Origin: Catellatospora methionotrophica
Lineage (GTDB): Bacteria; Actinomycetota; Actinomycetes; Mycobacteriales; Micromonosporaceae
Direction of reading: 5' to 3'
Assembly (NCBI RefSeq): GCF_011297335.1
Contig: NZ_JAAOTJ010000001.1
Coordinates: forward strand, 744,001 to 808,000
Length of the DNA stretch: 64,000 nt
Position 1 is the stretch's first letter; each line of letters starts with the position of its first letter. Below are positions 20,226-38,849 of this stretch, piece after piece. The notes under the pieces were generated by a model. That model searched no databases. It was not told the DNA's origin and worked only from the letters and a program-made list of their open reading frames with translations. A program made the position numbers and the translations under genes.

Positions 20226-20280
20226 ACCGGTCCGCCCGCCACGCCGCTGTGCTGGCGTGAATGGACTACGCTCCCGACGC

Positions 20281-20757
20281 ATGAGCGATCTTGGTGTTGC
20301 GCCGGAGACCCTCGCCCGCGCCGGGCATGAGCGATACCTGGCCGAGCAGACGGCCGCGGGTGTGCCGATGGGCGAGACCCCGGCCATGGCCACCTGGGAG
20401 GCGTTGCCCGACGACCTCAGGCAGGCCAACCTCGACCAGGTCGCCGACATCCCGGCCAAGCTCGCCATGGTGGGGTGCGCCGCCGCGCCCGCGGCCTCCG
20501 GCGACGCGGAGACCGCCTTCTCCGACGCCGAGCTGGAACTGCTGTCGGTGCACGAGCACGACCGCTGGTGCGCGCAGCGCGTCGCGGCGGGCTGGACGTA
20601 CGCCCCGGTCCGCGACGACGCTGCGAAGCATCATCCGTCCCTGACACCGTGGTCGGAGCTGTCCGAGTCGGAGAAGGACAAGGACCGCTCCGTCGTACGC
20701 CGCATTCCACTGTTGCTGGCCCTCGGGGGTCTGCGCATGGTGCGCCGCCAGGGCTGA
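20281..20757 (+). CDS. Stand-alone RyR-domain protein
   Basis: A 158-residue protein with a RyR (ryanodine receptor) domain in its C-terminal half: HEHDRWCAQRVAAGWTYAPV, KHHPSLTPWSELSESEKDKD and RSVVRRIPLLLALGG. The N-terminal half (ATWEALPDDLRQANLDQVAD, IPAKLAMVGCAAAP) matches the segment before the RyR domain in the TrkA-N protein at 24004-25725, so the whole protein is a paralogue of that C-terminal module. RyR domains in bacteria are small ligand-sensor candidates of unproven function. The ATG has no ribosome site; a TACGCT hexamer eight bases upstream suggests a leaderless mRNA. It is convergent with the TIR-WD40 gene. Confidence 0.8.
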   Translation: MSDLGVAPETLARAGHERYLAEQTAAGVPMGETPAMATWEALPDDLRQANLDQVADIPAKLAMVGCAAAPAASGDAETAFSDAELELLSVHEHDRWCAQRVAAGWTYAPVRDDAAKHHPSLTPWSELSESEKDKDRSVVRRIPLLLALGGLRMVRRQG

Positions 20758-20785
20758 GGGCGCACGACGGCCGTAGGCCGTGACG

Positions 20786-23704
20786 TCAACCGGCGGACGG
20801 GCACGTCTGCCGGTAGGCGACGCCCGGCCCCGCCTCGGCCCACTCCTGTTCGGTCAGCCCCCGCCCGACGATCGCGCAGGCCGCCGACGGCGCGGAGACG
20901 AGCTCACGAACCGGCGTCAGGTCCCACAGCCGCACGATGCGGTCGTCACCGCCGGACAGCAGCCTGCCCGACCCGGCGTCGAATGCCACCGTGGTGACGG
21001 CTTCGGCCGAGGCGGGGATCGTCAGCAGGGGCTCGGGCCGGCCCGTGGTGGTGTCCCACACGGCGACGGTGCCGTCGACGGCGCCGCCGGCCAGCAGCGG
21101 CTGCGGCCCGGCGGCGAGCTGGACGACACCCGCGCGGGGCACCTGCAACGTCGTCAGCCGCTGCGGCCGTGCCGGGTCGGACAGGTCCCACAGCACCGGC
21201 ATGCCCTTGCCCGCCACGGCGAGGGTCGCCCCGCCGGGCGTCCAGGCCACGGCCCACACCGGTTGCGGCTGACCGGGCACGGTCGCCACGACCCGCGGCG
21301 CGGCGGGGTCGGCGACGTCCCACACCGCGGCGGTCTGGTCGGTGCTGCCCGTGGCCAGCAGCCTGCCGTCGGCGGAGAACGCCGCCGACTGGACGCTGCC
21401 GGTGTGCGCGCCGAGGGTCGCGAGCCGCCGCGGCCGGGCCGGGTCGGCGACGTCCCACAGCGCCGCGGAACGGTCCCGGCTGGCGGTGACGGCGATACGG
21501 CCGTCGGGGGCGAAGGCGGCGTCCCATACGACGTCGGTGTGACCGGACAGGGTGGACAGCCGCCGTGGTGCGGCCCGGTCGCTCACGTCCCACAGCGCGG
21601 AGGTGCGGTCGTCGGACGCGGTGAGCAGGGTGCGCCCGTCCGGGCTGAACCTGACCGCGGTGACGGTGCCGGTGTGGCCGCGCAGGGTGGCGGTCGTGGT
21701 CGGCGCGGACGGGACGCTGAGGTCGTACAGCACGGTCAGGCCGTCCGCTCCCCCGACGGCGGCGGTCCGGCCGTCTGGGTGCAACGCCGTCGACGTGATC
21801 TGGTCGGCGCGCGGAGGAAGTCTCGCCACGGCGACGCCGTCGGCGGGCTGGTCGAGGTTCCACACGATCGCGGTCTGGTCGGCGCTGCCCGATACGACGG
21901 CGGTGCCCGCCGCGTCGAATCCGAGGTCCCACACGGCGTCCGTGTGGCCGGTGAGGGTGGCCGCCTTCACCGGGTCACCGGCGTCGGGCAGCCGCCACAG
22001 GTCGATCGTCCCGGACGCCCCGCCGATGGCCAGGCGGGTGCCGTCGGGGCTGAACGCCAGGCCCGCCGAGGACGTGTCGATGACCGTCTTGGACTTTTTC
22101 GGCGCGGCGGGGTCGGTGGTGTCGTACAGGTTCGTGCGGCCGTCGCGCCCGAGAACTGCCAGGCGCCTGCCGCCCGGGCCGAACGCGACTCGCGCGGCCC
22201 AGTCCGACCGGCCCGTCACGACGGCGACGCGGCGGGCGGCCTTCGGCTCGCTGACGTCCACGAGCAGCACGTTCTTCGTCGCCGCGCCGATCGCGAGCAG
22301 CCTGCCGCCGGGCGCGAACGCGATCGACAGCATCGGCGTGTCCGGATTGCCGAACGCCCCGCGCCGCTGCGGGGTGCCGGGGTCGGCCAGGTCCCAGAAC
22401 ACCGCCGACCCGTCCGCGGACGCGACGGCCAGCAGCCGCCCGTCGGACGTGAACGCGAGGCTCGTGGCGGGGCCGGTGTGCCCGGCCAGGGTCGCCAGCT
22501 GCCGGGGCCGGGCCGGATCGCCGACGTCGAACAGCATCGCGGTCGTGTCGGCGGAGGCGGTGGCCAGCAGTTTCCCGTCGGGGCTGAACGCCACGTCGAT
22601 GATCGCGCCGGAGTGCCCGCTGATGGTGGCCAGTGCGCGGTGGCGGCTGCCGGCCGCGGTGTCCCACAGGGTGACGGTCTGGTCGCCGCTGCCACCGGTG
22701 GCGGCCACCTGGCCGTCGGGACGGAGCGCGGCGGCGCTGACGATGTCGTCGTGCCCTGCCAGCACGGCGCGGATGCGGCTGGCCGCCGTCGTGGCCACCA
22801 GCGGCTGCCCCACCGAGGGCTGCGGGTGCAGCGCGTACGCGGCCAGGCCCAGCCGCATCGCCCGGACCGGGTCACTGCCGCGGACCTTGGCGGCCAGCTC
22901 GGTCAGGGTCCCGGCGGCGGCGATGTCCCGCTGGTCCTGCGCGGCCTGGGCCTGCTGCTCGGCGCGCGCGGACTGGCGCAGCGCGTACACGGTGGCGACG
23001 GCGGCCGCCACGAGCAGCACCGCCAGCGCGGTTCCCCCGGCCCCTGCGGCCCTGATGGCCTGCCGGTGCCGCCGCAGATGCGTGCTGAGCAGCTCCTCCT
23101 TCGCGACCCGGTGCAGCGGTGCGGCGATGTCGCCGACGGCGGCGAGCAGCTGCGGCTGGCCCAGGGTCAGCGGCCCGGCGTCGCGGATGCCGCGCAGGTC
23201 CACCCAGCGCGGCTCGTCGTCGTGGATGCCGGCGAGCATCGGCGTCCCGTCCGGGCCGGGCGTCTGCCGCCACAGCGCCGGTGGCAGGGCCGTGGTCTGC
23301 TCGGGGTCGAAGCGGCGCAGGTGCTCGTCCCAGACGAGTTCACCGCCGGTCAGCGCGATGATGATCGACGATGGTGAGCGGTGTCGCAGCCAGTGCCGCA
23401 CTTCCCGGTCGACGTAGGCCGACTCGGCCGCGCCGGGAGAGGCGAGCAGGATCAGGTGGCCGGAGTCGTCCATCGCCTGCTGCAGCGACGGCCACAGTGC
23501 CGGGTTGGCCGACAGGTCGGTGTCGTCGCGGAACACCCGCAGGGCGCGCGGCCGGTACCACGGCTTGCCGAGCACCTGGAGGCCGTGTTGCAGGCTGGTC
23601 GCCAGGTCGCGGTCGGCTGATCGGCGGTAGGAGATGAAGGCCGCGTAGCGGGTCGCCAAGGGATGCTCCCGTGTCGAGGTCGACGTGGTGGCGCAAGGGA
23701 CCAT
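20786..23704 (-). CDS. TIR domain, membrane helix and WD40 propeller protein
   Basis: A 972-residue protein. A TIR domain occupies about residues 18-130 (YAAFISYRRSADRDLATSL, RALRVFRDDTDLSANPALW, LILLASPGAAESAYVDREV). A linker leads to a membrane helix near 222-242, a short helical region, then WD40 repeats from about 314 to 945 with blades such as AFSPDGKLLATASAD and RFSPDGRTLLTASDD; roughly 13-14 blades fit, enough for two propellers. At the TIR position where NAD-cleaving TIRs carry the catalytic Glu (by comparison with SARM1) this protein has Pro72 in ALWPSLQ, so it may not be an NADase. A TTG at 23656 with GGGAG upstream is an alternative start. Confidence 0.88.
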   Translation of the reverse strand: MVPCATTSTSTREHPLATRYAAFISYRRSADRDLATSLQHGLQVLGKPWYRPRALRVFRDDTDLSANPALWPSLQQAMDDSGHLILLASPGAAESAYVDREVRHWLRHRSPSSIIIALTGGELVWDEHLRRFDPEQTTALPPALWRQTPGPDGTPMLAGIHDDEPRWVDLRGIRDAGPLTLGQPQLLAAVGDIAAPLHRVAKEELLSTHLRRHRQAIRAAGAGGTALAVLLVAAAVATVYALRQSARAEQQAQAAQDQRDIAAAGTLTELAAKVRGSDPVRAMRLGLAAYALHPQPSVGQPLVATTAASRIRAVLAGHDDIVSAAALRPDGQVAATGGSGDQTVTLWDTAAGSRHRALATISGHSGAIIDVAFSPDGKLLATASADTTAMLFDVGDPARPRQLATLAGHTGPATSLAFTSDGRLLAVASADGSAVFWDLADPGTPQRRGAFGNPDTPMLSIAFAPGGRLLAIGAATKNVLLVDVSEPKAARRVAVVTGRSDWAARVAFGPGGRRLAVLGRDGRTNLYDTTDPAAPKKSKTVIDTSSAGLAFSPDGTRLAIGGASGTIDLWRLPDAGDPVKAATLTGHTDAVWDLGFDAAGTAVVSGSADQTAIVWNLDQPADGVAVARLPPRADQITSTALHPDGRTAAVGGADGLTVLYDLSVPSAPTTTATLRGHTGTVTAVRFSPDGRTLLTASDDRTSALWDVSDRAAPRRLSTLSGHTDVVWDAAFAPDGRIAVTASRDRSAALWDVADPARPRRLATLGAHTGSVQSAAFSADGRLLATGSTDQTAAVWDVADPAAPRVVATVPGQPQPVWAVAWTPGGATLAVAGKGMPVLWDLSDPARPQRLTTLQVPRAGVVQLAAGPQPLLAGGAVDGTVAVWDTTTGRPEPLLTIPASAEAVTTVAFDAGSGRLLSGGDDRIVRLWDLTPVRELVSAPSAACAIVGRGLTEQEWAEAGPGVAYRQTCPSAG

Positions 23705-24003
23705 GGTGGCACAGCGCTTGCCCTCGGGACACTCTGTGTAACCGTGCGTGGCGGGGCGCGTGCCCCCGGAGCAGCAGGACTTCGCCGCTCAGGGGCGCGG
23801 CTGTCGCCGATGCGACACCGGCCGTGCCGGTCCCTCTACAGCCGACATGCCAGCTCAGACCTGCCCGTTACCCCGCGCCGGGACGCGGAGGCGATCTCCG
23901 GCGATTGACGTCATCAGTTCTGCAGTCCAGCGGCGTACCGGGTGTCCTAGCCTGACTGTCGACAAAGGTCAGTAGATCATCGTGGTAAAGGAACGGGACG
24001 CGT
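23705..24003. other. Divergent promoter region between the TIR-WD40 and TrkA-N/RyR genes
   Basis: A 299-base spacer between divergent genes. It carries no frame with convincing coding character, and I found no clear inverted repeat. It must hold both promoters. Confidence 0.4.
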
Positions 24004-25725
24004 ATGCGGACGACACCACCGGCCGGCCGTCGCGGCCGTGCACTGCCCGCGGCCCGATGGGGTTTCGCGCTGACCGTGGTGGCCTCGGTCGTGCTGGGCC
24101 TGTGGGGGCTGGAGCTCTACACCCGCGATCCACGCCATCCGATCGACCTCAGCCTGCTCGATCTCGTCTATCACGACCTGCAGTTGTTCGTGCTCGACTC
24201 CAGTCCGCTGGAGGCGGGCGGGCCCTTCCCGTGGCAGCTGGAGATCGCCCGGTTCCTCGCCCCCGCCGCCACCGTCTACGCCCTGTTCGAGGCCGGCCGG
24301 GCGATCTTCGCCGTCGAGTGGCAGCGCCGTCGCCGTCGCCGCCGCCACGGTCACGCCATCGTCGTCGGTGACACACCCACCGCCACCGCCATCTCCGCCG
24401 AGCTGCGCTCCACCGGCCGGTACGTGGTCCACGCCGACACCGGCGACGCCGCCGCCCTGCACGATGCGGGTGTGGCCGGAGCCGCCGTGGTGTACGCCTG
24501 CGCCGACGACCGCACCGACAGCAGCGTCAACGTGCTCACGGTGGCCACCGCGAGCCAGGCCCGCCGCTCCGGCAAGGCTGGCCCGCTAGCGGTGTACGCC
24601 CACGTCAGCGACCCCGCCTACGCCCTGTCGCTGCGGGCACGGCACCTCAGCCAGCCCCACGTCGGCGCGGACTTCTTCAACATCGACGAGCTCGCCGCCC
24701 GGGAGTTGGTGCGCCGCGACGCCGCGACGTTCGAGCACGGCCCCGCGCACGTGGTGATCGCGGGCCTCGGCGCGTTCGGGCAGGCGATGGTCGTCGAGCT
24801 GGCGCGGATGTGGCAGCTGCGGGGCCGTGGCGACCAGCTGACGGTGACGCTGGTCGACCCGGCAGCCGCTGACCTCGCCGAGCAGCTGCGACGGCGCTGG
24901 CCCGCGGTGGCGGAGTCCTGCCGCCTGCGCCCGATGCCCGGCCACCTCGGCGACATGGCCGGGCAGGCGGTGTCGCCGCCGCCGCACCGCACGTACCTGT
25001 GCCACGAGGACGAGGACGCCGCGGTGCTCGCGGCGCTGACGGTGACAGCCCTGTGGCACGGCGGCCCCCGGTCGCTGGTGTTGCGCCTGGACCGGCTGTC
25101 CCGGCTGGCCGATACCTTCGGCAGCGACCCGGCCAGTCTGCTCGACGACTTCGAGGGTGTCCTGTGGCCGGTCAGCGTCGGCAGCTTGATCGTCAACACG
25201 GTCCAGAGCGACGACGGCACCATCCATGAGGACACCTACCAGCGTCTGGCCCAATCCATCCACCACCTCTATCTGCGTCGCCAGCAGGACCGGGGCGGTC
25301 GATTCGGTGAGACGGCGGCGCTGGTGCCGTGGGAGCAGCTGGACCCCGCCTACCGTCTGGCCAACGTGAGGCAGGCGCGTGACATCGGCGCGAAGCTCAC
25401 CCGGTTGGGGTGCACCGTCGCGCCCCGCACCGGCGACGGCATCGAGACCGCCGACGACGTGCAGGTGGAGTCCCTCGCCGTGACCGAGCACGAACGGTGG
25501 ATGGACGAACGCGTCCGGCAGGGCTGGACGTATGGCGACGTGCGTGACGAGCATGCCAAGACCCACCCGAGCATCAAGCCCTGGGATCAGCTGCCCGAGT
25601 CCGAACGTGAGAAGGACCGCGACGTGGTACGCGACATCCCGCTGATCCTGGCCGACTTCGGGCTGCAGGTCGTCCGGCTGCCGCAGCGCACCGCCACGGG
25701 CGTGCCGCAACCGCGCGGCGCGTGA
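24004..25725 (+). CDS. Membrane protein with two TrkA-N/RCK-like domains and a C-terminal RyR domain
   Basis: A 573-residue protein. Two hydrophobic segments (about 18-40 and 84-105) anchor it; the loop between has no potassium selectivity filter, so it is not an obvious channel pore. A first Rossmann (TrkA-N) domain starts at HAIVVGDTPTATAIS (near 117). A second starts at HVVIAGLGAFGQAM, with the nucleotide-binding GLGAFG at 254-259. The C-terminal 130 residues hold the RyR module: WEQLDPAYRLANVRQARDIG, HERWMDERVRQGWTYGDVRD and HPSIKPWDQLPESEREKD. TrkA-N domains bind NAD(H) or nucleotides and gate transport. A nucleotide-sensing role is inferred. GGAACGGGA precedes the ATG. Confidence 0.85.
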   Translation: MRTTPPAGRRGRALPAARWGFALTVVASVVLGLWGLELYTRDPRHPIDLSLLDLVYHDLQLFVLDSSPLEAGGPFPWQLEIARFLAPAATVYALFEAGRAIFAVEWQRRRRRRRHGHAIVVGDTPTATAISAELRSTGRYVVHADTGDAAALHDAGVAGAAVVYACADDRTDSSVNVLTVATASQARRSGKAGPLAVYAHVSDPAYALSLRARHLSQPHVGADFFNIDELAARELVRRDAATFEHGPAHVVIAGLGAFGQAMVVELARMWQLRGRGDQLTVTLVDPAAADLAEQLRRRWPAVAESCRLRPMPGHLGDMAGQAVSPPPHRTYLCHEDEDAAVLAALTVTALWHGGPRSLVLRLDRLSRLADTFGSDPASLLDDFEGVLWPVSVGSLIVNTVQSDDGTIHEDTYQRLAQSIHHLYLRRQQDRGGRFGETAALVPWEQLDPAYRLANVRQARDIGAKLTRLGCTVAPRTGDGIETADDVQVESLAVTEHERWMDERVRQGWTYGDVRDEHAKTHPSIKPWDQLPESEREKDRDVVRDIPLILADFGLQVVRLPQRTATGVPQPRGA

Positions 25726-25740
25726 GGCCCCGGCGGCCGG

Positions 25741-26871
25741 TCACCGCCGCCCGACCTCGGCGATCGCGCGGCGCAGCGCCCCGGCGAAGTGCCGGACGTC
25801 GTCGGGGCCGGGTCCGTAGGCGAGGATCCGCTCACCGTCGAGCATCTTCGCCAGCAGGCCCTGGGGCGTGCCCGTCAGCGCGACCCGCTCGTCGGCCAGC
25901 ACGGCGACCCGGTCGCGCGCGCCGACGAGGATCCACCGGCCGGCGAACATCGGCTTGATGTTGCGGACCTCCCACAGCAGCGCGTCGGTCGGGTTCGACA
26001 CGTCGATCACGACGATGTCGCATACCCCCGCCAGGCCTCTGATCGCCTGCTGCCAGAACGCCGTCGGCACCGCCACCACCATCAGGCGCGGCGCGAAGGT
26101 CTTGCGCGCGGCCGCCGCCAGCTGCCGCGCCGCGCCGCCGACCTCGTGCTGGCTGGTCAGTGCCCGGCTCGCCGCACGTTCGGCGCGACGAGCGGCGCGG
26201 TGCGCGCCCAGCGCCACCGCCATGATCACAACCACCAGGCACACGAAGAACACGGCGACCGCGAAGGCTAACGCGTTGATGATGGCGATCATGGGACCGG
26301 CGAGGAAACGTTCCGCGGTCGAGTCGGCGCTGTTGATCGCCTCGTCGAGGTTGCGCTGTGCGTCGGCGTCGTATCCGCCGCCGCACAGGTAGAAGATCAC
26401 GATCGCGGCGAGCCCGCCCATCAGGATCCAGACTCCGGCCGCCACGCGCCGCTTGCCCGCACCCGCGCCGATCGGGACGACCATCGCGTCGTCGAGCGTG
26501 ACCAGCCGCAGCGAACGGCCGGCGGCCGACTTCAACGCGAAACTCACCGTCCGGGTGGTGTCGCCGAAACCGAACTTGCGCAGGTACAGCCCGAGCAGGC
26601 GGCGACCGCGGATGACACGCAGGCCGACCACCGGGAACACCACTGCCACTGCGGCGAGCAGCAGCAACTGCCCCAGGCCGGTGGCGGACGGCGGAGTGTT
26701 CTCGACTCCCTCCACGATGTTCGAGCCGTAGAGCACCAACGCGCCCAGCGGCAGGACAGCCGCCAGGGCTCCGGTCACGAGCAGTGCCACGCCGATGCAC
26801 ACGGCCAGGAACCGGCCCAGGGAGCTCCAGCCGTGCCCGCCCGGCACGTCCTCGATGATCGTTACTGCCAT
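25741..26871 (-). CDS. Four-helix membrane protein with a Rossmann-like cytosolic tail
   Basis: A 376-residue protein of a family I cannot name. Hydrophobic helices lie at about 19-45, 66-86, 142-163 and 195-222. The first cytosolic loop has the block LLGLYLRKFGFGDTTRTVSF and LVTLDDAMVVPIG. The tail (about 245-376) alternates strands and helices: LMVVAVPTAFWQQAIRGL, VCDIVVIDVSNPTDALLWEV and WILVGARDRVAVLA, a pattern seen in TIR-like or other flavodoxin-like folds of conflict systems. GAGGAG precedes the ATG. It converges with the TrkA-N/RyR gene (15 bases between stops) and lies divergently beside the second TIR gene, which suggests membership of the same system. Confidence 0.6.
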   Translation of the reverse strand: MAVTIIEDVPGGHGWSSLGRFLAVCIGVALLVTGALAAVLPLGALVLYGSNIVEGVENTPPSATGLGQLLLLAAVAVVFPVVGLRVIRGRRLLGLYLRKFGFGDTTRTVSFALKSAAGRSLRLVTLDDAMVVPIGAGAGKRRVAAGVWILMGGLAAIVIFYLCGGGYDADAQRNLDEAINSADSTAERFLAGPMIAIINALAFAVAVFFVCLVVVIMAVALGAHRAARRAERAASRALTSQHEVGGAARQLAAAARKTFAPRLMVVAVPTAFWQQAIRGLAGVCDIVVIDVSNPTDALLWEVRNIKPMFAGRWILVGARDRVAVLADERVALTGTPQGLLAKMLDGERILAYGPGPDDVRHFAGALRRAIAEVGRR

Positions 26872-27048
26872 GGCGTACTCCTCATGAAGAACCGACCGCC
26901 CGCAACAGCATCCGGTGCCTCAGACGACGGTACTGTCGGCTGCGCGACAGGCCGACTGAGCCGTTATCCGCGTCAAGGCCCTCGGGTCAGAGGCGTGCGG
27001 CCGGGTCAGTCGCGGTCAGGCGTCGCCGGCCGGTTGTAGGGTGCCCGT

Positions 27049-28353
27049 GTGAGCGGGTACGTGTTCATCAGCTACAGCCGGGCAGATCGCTCCTATGTAG
27101 AGCAACTCGCAGCCCAATTCGCCGCAGCGGGCATAGCGTGTTGGTACGACCACGCGCTCGCGCCGGGCGATCAGTGGGAGGACGTGATCCGCACCCAGGT
27201 CGAGGGCTGCGCGGCGCTCGTGGTGGTGATGACGCCCGACTCGGACGGTTCACGCTGGGTCAAGCGGGAACTGAACCACGCCGAGAACCACGGTAAACCG
27301 ATTCTCCCGCTGCTACTGCAGGGCAGCGGCTTCTTCAGCCTGTCTGATCTCCACTTCGCGAACGTGACCGGCGGCCGCATGCCCGAGCTTGAGGTCCTGG
27401 ACCGCCTCCGGCGGCTGGCGTCCTCTGGAGGACCGGACACGGTCCGGTACGAGGTGAGCCTCGTCCTCACCGGCCATGACAAACACGTATGGGTGGTCGC
27501 GTACGCGCCGGACGGACGCCAACTCGCGACAGCCGACGCAGCCGGCACGGTCCGGCTCTGGGACACGGCCGCCGGTACACCGCTCCACACCCTCGCCGGA
27601 CATCGCGGCGCGGTGTTCTCGGTGGCGTACTCACCCGACGGGAGCCGGCTCGCCACGACCGGCGCGGACGGCACCGTCCGGGTCTGGAGCACAGCCGACA
27701 GCGCTCCCCTGCAGACCCTCCACGGCCATGACGATTCCGTATGGTCCGTCACGTACTCGCCGGACGGACGCCACCTGGCCACCGCGAGCGGCGACTCCCT
27801 CTTCGCTCCGCATCCCGGCACGGCCAGGATCTGGGACCCCGTCACCGGCAGTCAGGTGGCCGTCCTCACCGGTCACACCGACTGGGTCCGCATGGCGGTG
27901 TACTCGCCGGACGGACGCTACCTGGCGACGACGGGGGACGACGCGACGATTCGGCTCTGGAATCCCGACACCGGCCGGCTTGAGCGCACCATCGCCGCAC
28001 ATACGGCGGCGAGGTGCCTGGCGTACTCCCCTGGCGGGCTTGAACTCGCGGCAGCCGACGAGAACGGGGTCATCCGCCTGTGGAACCTCGACGCCGACGG
28101 CCGTCAACGCACCCTCACCGGCCACCCTGGCGGCACGACGTCACTGGCGTATTCCCCTGACGGACGTCGCATCGCCACCTGGGGCACGGACATGCTCGCG
28201 CGGTTCTGGAACGCGACCACCGGCAGCCTGGAGTACACCCTGCCCAGCCACGGTGGCGGCGTGGTGTCACTGTCCCACTCACCCGATGGCCGTCATCTCG
28301 CCACGACGAATCTCGACTTCACGGTGACCGTCTGGCGGGCGACGGCGCAGTAG
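27049..28353 (+). CDS. TIR-WD40 protein with intact candidate catalytic Glu
   Basis: A 434-residue cytosolic protein. The TIR domain (about 1-135) begins GYVFISYSRADRSYVEQLAA and continues CWYDHALAPGDQWEDVIRTQ and WVKRELNHAENHGKPILPLL. Glu44 in DQWEDVI aligns by eye with the catalytic Glu of SARM1 (its FED motif), so NAD cleavage or cyclisation is plausible. Seven WD40 blades follow (for example AYSPDGSRLATTGADGTVRV and YSPDGRYLATTGDDATIRLW), ending at the last residue, enough for one propeller. There is no membrane helix. The GTG start has only a weak ribosome site. It is divergent from the four-helix membrane protein gene. Confidence 0.88.
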   Translation: MSGYVFISYSRADRSYVEQLAAQFAAAGIACWYDHALAPGDQWEDVIRTQVEGCAALVVVMTPDSDGSRWVKRELNHAENHGKPILPLLLQGSGFFSLSDLHFANVTGGRMPELEVLDRLRRLASSGGPDTVRYEVSLVLTGHDKHVWVVAYAPDGRQLATADAAGTVRLWDTAAGTPLHTLAGHRGAVFSVAYSPDGSRLATTGADGTVRVWSTADSAPLQTLHGHDDSVWSVTYSPDGRHLATASGDSLFAPHPGTARIWDPVTGSQVAVLTGHTDWVRMAVYSPDGRYLATTGDDATIRLWNPDTGRLERTIAAHTAARCLAYSPGGLELAAADENGVIRLWNLDADGRQRTLTGHPGGTTSLAYSPDGRRIATWGTDMLARFWNATTGSLEYTLPSHGGGVVSLSHSPDGRHLATTNLDFTVTVWRATAQ

Positions 28354-35308: not shown

Positions 35309-36304
35309 TTATTTGATGATCGATACCTTCGACCAGTCGAGGGTGAGTGCGACGGCGACGATGATGATCGCGCCGTACAGGATCTGCTCGTAGGCGGACG
35401 GCACGCCGACGATCGGCAGGCCGACCCGCAGCAGCGTCACCACGAGCGCGCCCGCCAGGCTCCGCCACAGGCTGCCGTGGCCGCCGGTGATGGCGGTGCC
35501 GCCGACGACGATCGCGGCGACCGCCGGCAGCAGCAGGTTGTCGGCCATGGTGGGGCCGCCGCTGAACTGCCGGGAGACCAGCATGACCGCGGCGAGCCCG
35601 GCGCACGCGCCGGAGACGCAGAACGCACCGATCTTGACCAGGTCGACGGGTGTGCCCGCGAGCCGCGCGGCCGACTCGGAGTAGCCGGTGGCCGAGATCC
35701 AGCTGTGCAGCGGGGTCGCCTTGACGACGGCGGCGATCAGGGCGACGACGAGCAGCGCCGTCGCCGCCGACATCGGCACGTAACCGGCGAGGTACAGCTC
35801 CAGCCACGCGACCGGCGTGTCGTCGACGACCCGTACGGTGCCCGCGCCGGACACGACGAGGGCGACCGCGGACAGGATGCTCATCCCGCCCAGGGTGACG
35901 ATGAACGACGGTATCCGCAGCAGCACGTGGGCCACGCCCTGTACCGCGCCGATCGCGGCCGCGACGGCGATGACGACCGGGGTGGCCAGGCCGCCGAGGT
36001 CCGGCAGCCACAGGGCCAGCAGGACGGTCGACAGCGAGGCCAGCGCCGCGATGGACAGGTCGATGCCGCCGCACAGGACGATGAGCGTCGCCCCCGCCGC
36101 GAGCACGATGAGCGGCGCGGCGGTGCGCGCGACAGCGGTCAGGCTGCGCTGGGTCAGGAAGTCCGGGTCGGCGATCGTCAGCGCGGCCACCAGCGCCACC
36201 AGGGCGATGAGCGGCATGAACCCGGTGATCCGCTGGGCGCGGCGGGGGCCGCTCTTGGCGGTCGCGGGTTCGGCGACCGGCGTCACGGCGACGGGAGTGC
36301 TCAT
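35309..36304 (-). CDS. Sugar ABC transporter permease (RbsC type), second copy
   Basis: A 331-residue membrane permease of the ribose/xylose group. Signature blocks are LIVLAAGATLIVLCGGIDLS, VLLRIPSFIVTLGGMSILS and VGGTAITGGHGSLWRSLAGA. Eight to ten hydrophobic helices fit the usual topology. The ATG overlaps the TGA of the ATPase gene (ATGA), so translation is coupled. With the other permease (37851-38849) it likely forms a heterodimeric channel for an aldose or uronate. Confidence 0.92.
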   Translation of the reverse strand: MSTPVAVTPVAEPATAKSGPRRAQRITGFMPLIALVALVAALTIADPDFLTQRSLTAVARTAAPLIVLAAGATLIVLCGGIDLSIAALASLSTVLLALWLPDLGGLATPVVIAVAAAIGAVQGVAHVLLRIPSFIVTLGGMSILSAVALVVSGAGTVRVVDDTPVAWLELYLAGYVPMSAATALLVVALIAAVVKATPLHSWISATGYSESAARLAGTPVDLVKIGAFCVSGACAGLAAVMLVSRQFSGGPTMADNLLLPAVAAIVVGGTAITGGHGSLWRSLAGALVVTLLRVGLPIVGVPSAYEQILYGAIIIVAVALTLDWSKVSIIK

Positions 36305-37854
36305 ACCATCTCTTTCACGAGGTCCAGGGGGCTCGGCTTGCCGCCGTTGGGGCAGGCGACCTCGGTCACGACCCGGCCGTCGTTCATGACCAGGATGCGG
36401 TCGGCCATGCCGATGGCCTCCTCGAGGCTGTCGGCCAGCAGCACGGTGGCGACGCCGCTGGCGGCGAGTTCGCGCATCAGCCGGTACACCTCGGAGCGGG
36501 CGCCGATGTCCAGGCCGCGGGTCGGGTGGTCCAGCAGCAGCAGCCGGATGTCGCCGGCGACCAGCCAGCGGGCCAGGACCACCTTCTGCTGGTTGCCGCC
36601 GGACAGCCGCTGGATCGGGGTGTCGCGGGTCGGGGTGCGGATGGACAGCCGCTCGATCCAGCGGTCCACCAGCCCGGCCTGCTTCGCGGGGGCCACGAAC
36701 GGGCCCGCGCAGCGGGCCTTCTGCTTGGTCAGGGTCATGTTCTCGGCGACCGACATCGGGCCGACCATGCCCTCGGTCTTGCGCTCGGCGGGCACGTAGC
36801 CGATACCGGCGGCGCACGCGGCGCGGGTGTTGGGCAGGCTGATCCGCTTGCCGTCCATCCGGATCTCGCCTGCGGTCGTCGGCTCGATGCCGAACAGGGC
36901 CCGGCAGACGTCCTCGCGGCCCGAGCCGTGCACACCGACGATCGCCACGACCTCACCCGCCGCGACGTCCAGGTCGACGTCGCGGAACGACGCGCCCGAC
37001 AGGCCGCGTACGGACAGCCGAGGCTCGGCGGCCCCGACGGGCGTGGCGGCGTTGGAGTGGTAGTGGTCGTCGGACCCGGTGGAGCCGATCATCATGCGGT
37101 GCAGCTCGCGCGGGACGGCCCCGGCCGTGGCGACCTCGCCGACCGACTGGCCGCCGCGCAGCACGGTCACCCGGTCGCACACGTCGAGCACCTCGTCCAG
37201 GCGGTGCGAGACGAAAACGACGGACGCGAACTCGCGCAGCCGGCGGATCTGCGCGAACAGGGTGTCGATCTCCTTGGACTCCAGCACCGAGGTCGGCTCG
37301 TCCAGGATGATGACCGGCGGGTGCTGGCTGCGCTGCTCGATGCGCAGCACCTTCGCGATCTCGACCATCTGCCGGTCGGCGAAGGAGAGGCTGTCGGTAC
37401 GCGCCAGGGGGTCGATCTTCGAACCGATCTTGTCGAGCTGCTCCTGGGCCAGCCGCCGCATGACGTCCCAGCGGTAGACGCCACGGCGGACCGCGCCGCC
37501 TTCGCTGCCGAGCAGGATGTTCTCCGCCGCGGTCAGGTTGGGCACCAGGGACTGCTCCTGGAACACCATGCCGATGCCGTGGTCGGCGGCCTCGACGACG
37601 CTGCGCAGCTTGACCGGCTCACCCCGGACGTAGATCTCACCGGCGTCGGGGGTGACCAGGCCGACCAGGGCTTTGAGCAGCGTGGACTTGCCCGCGCCGT
37701 TCTCCCCGGCCAGACCCAGCACCTCGTGCTGGTGGACGACCAGGTCGACGCCGTCGAGGGCCTTCACCCCCGGGTAGTGCTTGACGAGGCCGCGGACCTC
37801 CAGCGCCGGCACCGGCGCGGACGTCGCGGGCTCCCGCTCGGCTGGGACGCTCAC
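36301..37854 (-). CDS. Sugar ABC transporter ATP-binding protein (double cassette)
   Basis: A 517-residue protein with two ABC cassettes, as in RbsA/XylG. The first has an intact Walker A (GENGAGKST) and Walker B (VIILDEPTSV); its signature motif is degenerate (LSFADRQ). The second has a weakened P-loop (GVHGSGRED), an intact signature LSGGNQQK and LLLLDHPTRGLD, in which His replaces the usual catalytic Glu after Asp. This asymmetry is normal for sugar importers of this class. The GTG start overlaps the upstream permease stop by four bases. Confidence 0.92.
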   Translation of the reverse strand: MSVPAEREPATSAPVPALEVRGLVKHYPGVKALDGVDLVVHQHEVLGLAGENGAGKSTLLKALVGLVTPDAGEIYVRGEPVKLRSVVEAADHGIGMVFQEQSLVPNLTAAENILLGSEGGAVRRGVYRWDVMRRLAQEQLDKIGSKIDPLARTDSLSFADRQMVEIAKVLRIEQRSQHPPVIILDEPTSVLESKEIDTLFAQIRRLREFASVVFVSHRLDEVLDVCDRVTVLRGGQSVGEVATAGAVPRELHRMMIGSTGSDDHYHSNAATPVGAAEPRLSVRGLSGASFRDVDLDVAAGEVVAIVGVHGSGREDVCRALFGIEPTTAGEIRMDGKRISLPNTRAACAAGIGYVPAERKTEGMVGPMSVAENMTLTKQKARCAGPFVAPAKQAGLVDRWIERLSIRTPTRDTPIQRLSGGNQQKVVLARWLVAGDIRLLLLDHPTRGLDIGARSEVYRLMRELAASGVATVLLADSLEEAIGMADRILVMNDGRVVTEVACPNGGKPSPLDLVKEMV

Positions 37855-38849
37855 TTGACCACCTGGTTCCTTCGACGCTGCGGGATGACCGCGGCGGCGA
37901 CCGCGGCCACGACGATGAGACCCTCGACGCCACCCTGCCAGTACGGGCTGACCCCGACCTGGACGAGACCGTTGGTGAGCACCATGACGAGCAGGACACC
38001 CACGGCGGAGTGCAGGATGCCGCCCCGGCCGCCGGTGAGCAGGGTGCCGCCGACGACGGCGGCGGTGATGGCCGAGAAGTCGTATCCGTTGCCGGCCTGC
38101 ACGAGACCGGCGCCGAGCTGGCTGGTCACCATGACCCCGGCCAGCCCGTAGAACGCCCCGGCGAGGGTGAAGACCGCGACCTTGTACGGCTTGACCCGGA
38201 CCCCGGACAGCGTCAGCACCTCCTCGGCCCCGCCGATCGCGTACGCGTACCGGCCGAGCCTGGTGTAGCGCTGGATGAGCCAGCCCGCCAGGATGCACGC
38301 GGCGGCGATCCAGGTGAGGTAGGACAGGCCCAGGAAGCGCTCGATCGCCCAGCTCTTGAGCATGACGTCGGAGATGTTGGGCTGGACCCCGGCGAACATG
38401 AGGGTCGCGACGCCGAGCCCGATGGCCGACACCCCGAGCGTGGCCATGAACGACGGCACCTTCAAAGTGACCAGCGCGAGCCCGCTCAGGAAACCGAACG
38501 CGCAGCCCATCGCGACGGCGACGGCGATGCCGAGCAGCCCGAGGTCGTTGTCGTTGCGGTTGTTGGCCACGAGCAGTGACACGGTCAGCGCGGAGGCGCC
38601 CATCACCCCCGCCGACGACAGGTCGATGGACCCCATCATCAGCACGAAGGTGATGCCGCAGGTGACTACGGCGAGCACGGCGGCGGCGTCGACGATGTTC
38701 TGGACGTTGGCGATGCTGCGGAACTGCGGGCTCAGGGCCGCGAACACCGCGAAGATGACGACCAGCGCGACCGGTGGGCCGGCGTCGCGAAACGCCGTGC
38801 CCCGCCGAATGATCCGGCGGGGCACGGCGGCCCCGGTGGTGACCGTCAC
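37851..38849 (-). CDS. Sugar ABC transporter permease (RbsC type), first copy
   Basis: A 332-residue permease similar in plan to the other one, with the blocks VTCGITFVLMMGSIDLSSAG, TLKVPSFMATLGVSAIGLG and VGGTLLTGGRGGILHSAVG. The GTG start overlaps the stop of the binding-protein gene (GTGA), indicating coupled translation. The partner permease shares the same fold but is clearly divergent in sequence, so the pair arose by old duplication rather than recent copying. Confidence 0.92.
   Translation of the reverse strand: MTVTTGAAVPRRIIRRGTAFRDAGPPVALVVIFAVFAALSPQFRSIANVQNIVDAAAVLAVVTCGITFVLMMGSIDLSSAGVMGASALTVSLLVANNRNDNDLGLLGIAVAVAMGCAFGFLSGLALVTLKVPSFMATLGVSAIGLGVATLMFAGVQPNISDVMLKSWAIERFLGLSYLTWIAAACILAGWLIQRYTRLGRYAYAIGGAEEVLTLSGVRVKPYKVAVFTLAGAFYGLAGVMVTSQLGAGLVQAGNGYDFSAITAAVVGGTLLTGGRGGILHSAVGVLLVMVLTNGLVQVGVSPYWQGGVEGLIVVAAVAAAVIPQRRRNQVVK

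What the first reader, a model, noticed from the sequence alone, without database searches (positions are those of the whole stretch)
20281..28353. TIR / WD40 / TrkA-N / RyR island that may be an NAD-messenger signalling or defence system
Seen: five neighbouring genes encode a stand-alone RyR protein, a TIR-TM-WD40 protein, a membrane protein with two TrkA-N domains and a C-terminal RyR domain, a membrane protein with a Rossmann-like tail, and a cytosolic TIR-WD40 protein. Known: TIR domains of bacterial defence systems and SARM1 cleave NAD and can make cyclic ADP-ribose variants; cADPR is linked to ryanodine receptors in animals; TrkA-N domains bind NAD-type nucleotides and gate membrane proteins. 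Inference: TIR proteins sense a trigger through the WD40 propeller and make a messenger bound by RyR and/or TrkA-N domains, which then alter membrane flux. I know of no described system with exactly this gene set.
Basis: partly seen in the sequence, partly recalled or inferred. Interest (0 to 1): 0.88.

Follow-up and report, generated by a model that had tools for sequence, protein, structure and literature searches.

The report
TIR enzymes beside RyR-domain channel-like proteins
A soil actinomycete carries a small gene island that joins TIR enzymes, which can turn NAD into signal molecules, with a channel-like membrane protein bearing the ryanodine-receptor domain now known to bind such signals; the pairing recurs in other genomes and may be an undescribed bacterial signalling or defence system.

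Summary
Window 20257-28353 encodes a stand-alone RyR protein, a TIR-TM-WD40 protein, a 2TM-RCK-RCK-RyR protein, an orphan membrane protein (MP) and a TIR-WD40 protein, on alternating strands. Both Pfam RyR matches of the genome and two of its three TIR_2 matches over the cut-off lie here.

The set recurs: a same-genus genome (G557) carries all five families within 25 kb; Dactylosporangium sucinum, Micromonospora avicenniae, G027 and Catelliglobosispora koreensis carry subsets. MP occurs in 6 of 300 family genomes, all 6 with a channel homolog. TIR proximity exceeds expectation when FxsC-type TIRs count; without them, and without this genome, it is weak (P 0.12 and 0.013).

A 2026 preprint (PMC13232231) shows that phage RyR proteins bind or cleave 2'/3'cADPR. 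Its four site residues are kept in both window RyR domains. The AlphaFold model (pLDDT 85) shows TM1, pore-like helix, TM2, tandem RCK (GsuK-like) and a two-repeat RyR module. The K+ filter is missing.

Best reading: TIR enzymes, one probably a transmembrane receptor, make an ADPR-type signal that binds the channel's RyR module; the stand-alone RyR may remove it. No biochemistry was done; most relatives lack a nearby TIR. Not Thoeris by gene content; works-like is plausible.

The parts
20257..20757 (+). Stand-alone RyR (R12-like) protein; start GTG 20257 or ATG 20281
   Evidence: Pfam RyR 60.5 bits; H75/W78/H100/D117 of RyDEP conserved; matches channel residues 413-560, i.e. both repeats
20786..23704 (-). 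TIR-TM-WD40 protein, 972 aa; TIR near the N terminus, one TM helix at 224-242, WD40 repeats, C-terminal Cys pair
   Evidence: TIR_2 32.5 bits; best solved match SARM1, E 0.007; TM, Lys/Arg bias, Cys pair
24004..25725 (+). Channel-like protein, 573 aa: TM1, pore-like helix, TM2, two RCK/TrkA-N domains, two-repeat RyR module at the C terminus
25741..26871 (-). MP: orphan membrane protein of 376 aa with an alpha/beta C-terminal tail (motif VIDVSxPTDxLLWE)
   Evidence: no Pfam/NCBIfam match over a cut-off
27049..28353 (+). TIR-WD40 protein, 434 aa, no TM helix seen in the sequence (my reading)
   Evidence: TIR_2 81.1 bits, WD40; Glu in WVKREL

Best explanation
The island encodes a TIR-to-RyR signalling module. 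Shown by sequence: two TIR proteins with the conserved TIR glutamate, a 2TM-RCK-RCK protein carrying a tandem RyR (R12-like) module whose ligand-site residues match those of cADPR-binding phage RyR proteins, a stand-alone RyR protein of the same kind, and recurrence of the set. Inferred: the membrane TIR protein senses something outside the membrane through its WD40 propeller and the soluble TIR-WD40 senses something inside; on triggering they convert NAD+ to an ADPR-type signal (cADPR variant); the signal binds the channel's RyR module and, with NAD/ADP at the RCK domains, changes membrane permeability, stopping growth or killing an infected or stressed cell; the stand-alone RyR protein removes the signal by hydrolysis or sequestration. 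The MP role is unknown.
For: Ligand: phage RyDEP cleaves 2'/3'cADPR through a site of H75, W78, H100, D117, and six of eight tested homologs bind the signals (PMC13232231, outline, first two of six parts and passages); all four residues are kept in both window RyR domains aligned to gp78 itself. Receptor: AlphaFold model pLDDT 85.2, pTM 0.80; Foldseek finds human RyR3 Repeat12 and the GsuK channel; the profile finds RyR1-3, GsuK, TrkA. Linkage: the five families again in G557, subsets in D. sucinum, M. avicenniae, G027, C. koreensis; MP in 6 of 300 family genomes, all with a channel homolog (in G009 the channel and RyR are separate neighbouring genes and MP is on another contig). Another TIR type: Mycolicibacillus koreensis, whose only TIR_2 match lies about 55 bp downstream of its channel. 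A TIR of any type within 10 kb of the channel: 5 of 35 family genomes without this one (0.61 expected, P 0.0003) and 10 of 33 named genomes (0.52 expected, none of 200,000 draws). Topology: 7 of 7 TIR-TM-WD40 proteins have one strong TM, more Lys/Arg on the TIR side and a C-terminal Cys pair. Stand-alone RyR keep H75 and D117 in 7 of 7 read (window, G027, G557, G009, G003, G098, G084).
Against: No activity was measured. Most channel relatives have no TIR nearby (30 of 36 family genomes, 23 of 33 named). Without FxsC/FxsT-type TIRs the excess is weak: 2 of 35 without this genome (P 0.12) and 3 of 33 (P 0.013). The island is not an operon. None of 31 sequences has the K+ filter motif, so the pore is unproven; whole-chain fold scores are low (TM-score by query 0.2-0.3, GsuK rmsd 11.6 or more). 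Channel RyR keep H75 in 61 of 66 scored, so a clean receptor/hydrolase split is not seen, and in the preprint well-conserved homologs did not cleave. Animal R12 structures hold ADP or ATP analogues (titles), so an adenylate ligand is possible.
Confidence: 0.45

Rival explanations
1. The RyR/RCK protein is a housekeeping channel or transporter gate that senses adenylates or NAD (GsuK-like); TIR proteins are separate NADase effectors that happen to share variable regions with it. No messenger passes between them.
For: Many family members sit beside a SLOG-like gene without a TIR (28 loci; 42 of 68 named loci hold the gene, 39 directly downstream); solved RyR R12 entries are with ADP or ATP analogues and GsuK entries with ADP or NAD (titles); the non-Fxs TIR excess is weak.
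Against: TIR linkage of all types is above expectation; the five-family set recurs in G557; patchy presence, 2 of 11 in the genus, does not suit housekeeping.
Confidence: 0.28
2. The RyR proteins here are all signal erasers (RyDEP-like glycosidases or sponges) that restrain the TIR enzymes; the 2TM-RCK part only tethers the eraser to the membrane near the TIR-TM receptor and conducts nothing.
For: H75 and D117, the RyDEP catalytic pair, are kept in both window RyR domains, and H75 in 61 of 66 channel RyR scored; no K+ filter in any of 31 sequences.
Against: Channel RyR of G027 (Q) and G557 (K) lack H75, and the D117 place is N in 30 of 66, which suits binding rather than cleavage; a pore-like helix and a long TM2 run into tandem RCK as in gated channels.
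Confidence: 0.13
3. Chance or hitch-hiking: an accessory region collects TIR, WD40 and RyR genes independently.
For: Alternating strands; a transposase-like gene (my reading) inside the G557 stretch; genomes in the set hold up to 28 TIR_2 matches; 2 of 35 family genomes for non-Fxs TIRs is not significant (P 0.12).
Against: Both RyR and 2 of 3 TIR_2 matches of this genome are here; a genome with a single TIR_2 match has it next to the channel (L163); the set recurs with MP, which is rare (6 of 300).
Confidence: 0.08

Closest known systems
Thoeris (ThsB TIR plus ThsA-type effector)
   Same: TIR proteins next to a protein with a domain that can bind TIR-made ADPR signals
   Different: No ThsA-type, SIR2, SLOG or Macro match in the lists shown for the island proteins; receptor is a RyR module on a 2TM-RCK protein; genes not in an operon; TIRs carry WD40. 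The Thoeris definition is recalled, with the preprint for the signals
RyDEP, phage RyR-domain anti-Thoeris proteins (PMC13232231)
   Same: PF02026 and all four ligand-site residues
   Different: Chromosomal, tandem two-repeat module, one copy fused to a channel-like protein, next to TIR genes; activity untested
Animal ryanodine receptors, Repeat12 domain
   Same: Two-repeat RyR module on an ion-channel-like protein; sequence and Foldseek match
   Different: 573 aa instead of about 5000; the 2TM-RCK part resembles GsuK, and Pfam finds only RyR and TrkA_N
GsuK-type RCK channels
   Same: TM1, pore-like helix, TM2 and two RCK domains; profile and fold match to GsuK
   Different: No TVG[YF]G filter in 31 of 31 sequences; added RyR module
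Oomycete PKDRR channels (PMC7399828, passages read)
   Same: An ion channel of another family that carries two RyR domains of unknown function
   Different: PKD-type pore, eukaryotic; no TIR link in the passages read

Membership tests
Thoeris | TIR protein with the catalytic-type glutamate | tested here: met
   Glu in both window TIRs at the place shared by the TIR-TM-WD40 and TIR-WD40 relatives; TIR_2 over the cut-off; activity not tested
Thoeris | ThsA-type effector (SLOG or Macro sensor with SIR2 or TM) beside it | tested here: not met
   No SLOG, Macro or SIR2 match in the Pfam lists shown (25 of 47 and 25 of 49 families shown for the WD40 proteins); no ThsA model in PADLOC
Thoeris | anti-phage activity through a cADPR signal | not testable with these tools
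   needs biochemistry and phage assays
RyR domain family PF02026 | Pfam match over the curated cut-off | tested here: met
   60.5 and 67.9 bits against 27.4
cADPR-binding RyR proteins (RyDEP-like) | H75, W78, H100, D117 of gp78 | tested here: met
   all four in both window domains
cADPR-binding RyR proteins (RyDEP-like) | binding or cleavage of 2'/3'cADPR | not testable with these tools
   in the preprint RyDEP cleaves, six of eight tested homologs bind and the other tested homologs did not cleave; not tested for this protein
RCK-gated K+ channels (GsuK) | 2TM plus pore helix plus RCK domains | tested here: met
   AlphaFold monomer model, TM region pLDDT about 58-88; GsuK match
RCK-gated K+ channels (GsuK) | K+ selectivity filter TVG[YF]G (motif recalled) | tested here: not met
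   0 of 31 sequences
Animal-type ryanodine receptor | two-repeat R12 module | tested here: met
   repeat A versus repeat B hhalign probability 98.3, E 1.2e-14; Foldseek to human RyR3 R12
Animal-type ryanodine receptor | RyR pore and MIR/RIH regions | tested here: not met
   only RyR and TrkA_N found in the channel protein

The most novel reading that the evidence does not exclude
A bacterial counterpart of cADPR-to-ryanodine-receptor signalling: a TIR receptor with an outward-facing WD40 propeller makes a cADPR variant inside the cell, which opens a small RCK channel through a two-repeat RyR module, while a stand-alone RyR glycosidase switches the signal off. It would mean that RyR modules on ion channels read TIR-made NAD messengers in bacteria, and it would give a possible chromosomal source for the phage RyDEP proteins.
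Probability: 0.32. Interest if true: 0.94.

Novelty: new variant of a known kind. Interest (0 to 1): 0.81.

Why it matters
Whether RyR domains read cADPR-type messengers is an old question in animal physiology, and the 2026 RyDEP preprint shows that phage RyR proteins bind such messengers but describes no bacterial receptor in the parts I read. This island offers a small, expressible protein that puts that domain on a channel-like membrane protein beside the enzymes that could make the ligand, so the question becomes directly testable. It would also add an effector class to TIR-based immunity.

Tried and rejected
Operon or single cassette: rejected, the genes alternate in strand.

Thoeris membership: rejected on gene content.

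Random neighbourhood: disfavoured, mainly by the recurrence of the set with MP. The proximity counts are weaker than I first took them for. One search included this genome, which was chosen because of its TIRs, and counted L160, whose TIR lies in an FxsT-like gene, as non-Fxs. One search mends both: all TIR types 5 of 35 (P 0.0003) and 10 of 33; non-Fxs 2 of 35 (P 0.12) and 3 of 33 (P 0.013). The two sets overlap, relatives are not independent, and background counts use Pfam TIR_2 while observed counts use my own HMM. One more family genome (G079) has a TIR_2 match 3.3 kb away in a 1314-aa frame that my HMM did not report. I lowered the best explanation from 0.48 to 0.45 and raised chance from 0.06 to 0.08 for this.

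D117 as a marker of TIR linkage: not claimed. The place is D in the TIR-linked window-type channels but also in Streptosporangiaceae channels without a nearby TIR, and N in many Micromonosporaceae ones (24 D, 30 N, 12 other of 66 scored with fixed spacing, 2 not matched); it looks more like descent. In four Promicromonosporaceae rows a one-residue insertion shifts the place.

H75 as a receptor/eraser marker: weak. It is lost in the channels of G027 and G557 but kept in 61 of 66 scored.

MP fold: poor model, nothing at E 0.001 in the fold search, nothing in the profile search of solved structures. A TIR- or deoxyribosyltransferase-like tail is my guess from the LLWE motif, recalled and not tested.

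SLOG identity of the neighbour gene: only sub-threshold matches to YpsA (E 0.23) and YAcAr (E 0.044) and YpsA at E 1.9; the name SLOG-like rests on those and on recalled motifs.

Plasmid copies: one partial match in 72,556 records. Promoter and terminator scan: nothing useful.

Clean empty site: not shown. The left neighbour DUF899 has a match in 11 of 11 genus genomes and the right neighbour in 6 of 11, this genome included, but in the genomes listed their best matches are not adjacent.

Literature: eight topic searches (of only 20 of 256 and 15 of 122 papers were listed) showed no paper on a bacterial RyR-TrkA protein or TIR-RyR gene pair. Passages of PMC7016017, PMC9503650 and PMC7159879 were seen by term look-up only; the last two hold no RyR mention. 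The 2015 Nucleic Acids Research paper on nucleotide-centric conflict systems, recalled, is not held, so prior mention there cannot be excluded.

Full report
What is there. The window stretch 20257-28353 holds five genes on alternating strands: RyR (+), TIR-TM-WD40 (-), TM-TrkA_N-RyR (+), orphan membrane protein MP (-), TIR-WD40 (+). The host genome has 8,391,523 bases. It has two Pfam RyR matches, both here, and three TIR_2 matches over the cut-off, two of them here. The third lies in a stretch with a TIR gene, an FxsC-like gene and an FxsT-like gene (L184).

The channel-like protein. The 573-residue protein was modelled with 31 sequences: the window protein and 30 of the 31 relatives left from 66 after removal of near-copies (L166 left out). 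The model has mean pLDDT 85.2 and pTM 0.80: helices 14-41, 51-63 and 77-113, then two alpha/beta domains, then a helical C-terminal module. The TM region is less sure (pLDDT about 58-88). Foldseek matches the C-terminal part to human RyR3 Repeat12 and most of the chain to GsuK bound to ADP or NAD; E-values are 3.9e-7 to about 1e-4 in the rows shown and TM-scores by query only 0.2-0.3, with rmsd of 11.6 or more for GsuK (50 rows shown of 91 at E 0.001). A profile search of solved structures gives RyR1-3, a putative bacterial-type RyR, TrkA and GsuK. The C-terminal part holds two RyR repeats: profiles of the two halves match each other (probability 98.3, E 1.2e-14). None of the 31 sequences has a TVG[YF]G filter, so a K+ pore is not shown and ion conduction is inference.

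The ligand site. A 2026 preprint (PMC13232231; outline and abstract, the first two of six parts of the text, and passages) reports that phage RyDEP cleaves 2'- and 3'cADPR, that six of eight tested homologs bind these signals while the other tested homologs did not cleave, and that H75, W78, H100 and D117 belong to the site. I fetched gp78 and checked the four residues. In an alignment of eight RyR proteins H75, W78 and D117 are invariant, and H100 is present in both window domains. Stand-alone bacterial RyR proteins keep H75 and D117 in 7 of 7 read (window, G027, G557, G009, G003, G098, G084), though G027 has Q for H100 and the last two look phage-like. Channel RyR keep H75 in 61 of 66 scored (named loci and window); G027 has Q and G557 has K.

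The TIR proteins. Both window TIRs carry the glutamate in the S-x-x-x-x-x-E place of the TIR-TM-WD40 and TIR-WD40 relatives; some FxsC copies (second copies in L127 and L153) have H there (by reading). The membrane TIR domain's best solved match is SARM1 (E 0.007). Seven TIR-TM-WD40 proteins (window, three of D. sucinum, one of M. avicenniae, two of G557) each have one strong TM helix after the TIR domain, more Lys/Arg in the 15 residues on the TIR side (by one residue in four of seven) and a C-terminal Cys pair. This suits a cytosolic TIR and an outward-facing WD40; it is an inference from composition.

Conservation of the set. In G557, a genome of the same genus, one 25-kb stretch holds the channel, two TIR-TM-WD40 genes, a stand-alone RyR, two further TIR genes (one with WD40) and MP. 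D. sucinum (L033/L103/L182) has two channels, three TIR-TM-WD40, two TIR-WD40 and MP. M. avicenniae has a TIR-TM-WD40 frame directly upstream of its channel, missed by my gene caller and found by frame listing. G027 has stand-alone RyR, channel, TIR-WD40 and, about 8 kb off, MP. C. koreensis has channel and MP side by side but no TIR within 10 kb. Microbispora sp. H13382 (L104) has a close channel and no TIR within 10 kb. MP occurs in 6 of 300 family genomes at E 1e-10, and all six have a channel homolog, against 42 of 121 family genomes with any match to the channel. In G009 channel and RyR are separate genes and MP is on another contig. Within the genus 2 of 11 genomes have the channel.

Other TIR links. 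Mycolicibacillus koreensis has one TIR_2 match in the genome, about 55 bp downstream of its channel, in a protein with a PknH_C domain and an apparent TM stretch. FxsC, the TIR-like protein of FxSxx-COOH systems, sits near channels in L054, L058, L066/L127, L117, L119, L124, L125 and L153 by my profiles; NCBIfam was run on two of these copies and matched both. In G003 a stand-alone RyR gene overlaps a TIR gene on the same strand; that TIR protein has a phosphorylase match below the cut-off.

Counts. Within 10 kb a TIR of any type was found for 5 of 35 family genomes with a channel, this genome left out (0.61 expected from TIR_2 counts, P 0.0003), and for 10 of 33 named genomes (0.52 expected; none of 200,000 draws). 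Leaving out Fxs-type TIRs: 2 of 35 (P 0.12) and 3 of 33 (P 0.013) (which mends). The 33 are those of 34 handles asked that were held, out of 68 named loci. The sets overlap and relatives are not independent. A tree of 88 channel proteins needs 4 changes for the non-Fxs TIR label and 6 for the Fxs-TIR label, and puts the window channel with M. avicenniae (support 99) and then with D. sucinum and Microbispora sp. H13382 (98) (quick method, several long branches).

The SLOG-like partner. A gene of about 160 residues lies in 42 of 68 named loci, in 39 directly downstream of the channel. In a gammaproteobacterial MAG (L166) one 769-residue protein matches my channel, RyR (two stretches) and SLOG-like profiles together, although Pfam sees only TrkA_N there. 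SLOG-like is a weak assignment. It matters because some SLOG domains sense cADPR variants (PMC9503650, passages).

Mechanism. Shown: domains, residues, model, recurrence. Inferred: NAD conversion by the TIRs, binding of the product by the RyR modules, a change of membrane flux, removal of the signal by the stand-alone RyR, and a role in defence or stress. I give the whole chain 0.45, a housekeeping adenylate or NAD sensor 0.28, a tethered eraser 0.13 and chance 0.08.

Novelty. It is not Thoeris by gene content. It would work like a TIR-messenger-effector system with a RyR channel as the effector; I found no description in eight topic searches of the held library (listed in Tried and rejected).

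Noticed in passing
L111, L115, L117, L119, L124, L125, L127, L128, L130, L133, L136, L138, L139, L149, L153, L158, L161: FxSxx-COOH system genes (FxsB radical SAM, HExxH hydroxylase, FxsT, TIR-like FxsC) recur near the RyR channel: two or more components in 17 of 68 named loci. The one relevant paper found (PMC7159879, term look-up) does not mention RyR.
   Followed up: partly
L166:5006-7315: Gammaproteobacterial MAG protein that matches my channel, RyR and SLOG-like profiles in one chain.
   Followed up: partly
L070:9826-12232: Stand-alone RyR gene overlapping by 23 bp a TIR gene with a sub-threshold nucleoside-phosphorylase match, same strand.
   Followed up: partly
L191:8819-12466: 1215-residue unannotated protein between the channel and a TIR-TM-WD40 gene in the G557 island.
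   Followed up: no
L033:8360-10198 and L182:4884-6650: Two related proteins of about 600 residues that start with an Hsp70/actin-like glycine motif (my reading) inside the D. sucinum island.
   Followed up: no
window 36301-38298: 665-residue protein matches PADLOC mad3 (E 1.9e-37) and weakly mad8 and AriA models; may be a generic ATPase.
   Followed up: no
phage collection: RyR-like proteins are common in phages: 205 of 50,697 records match the stand-alone RyR at E 0.01.
   Followed up: partly
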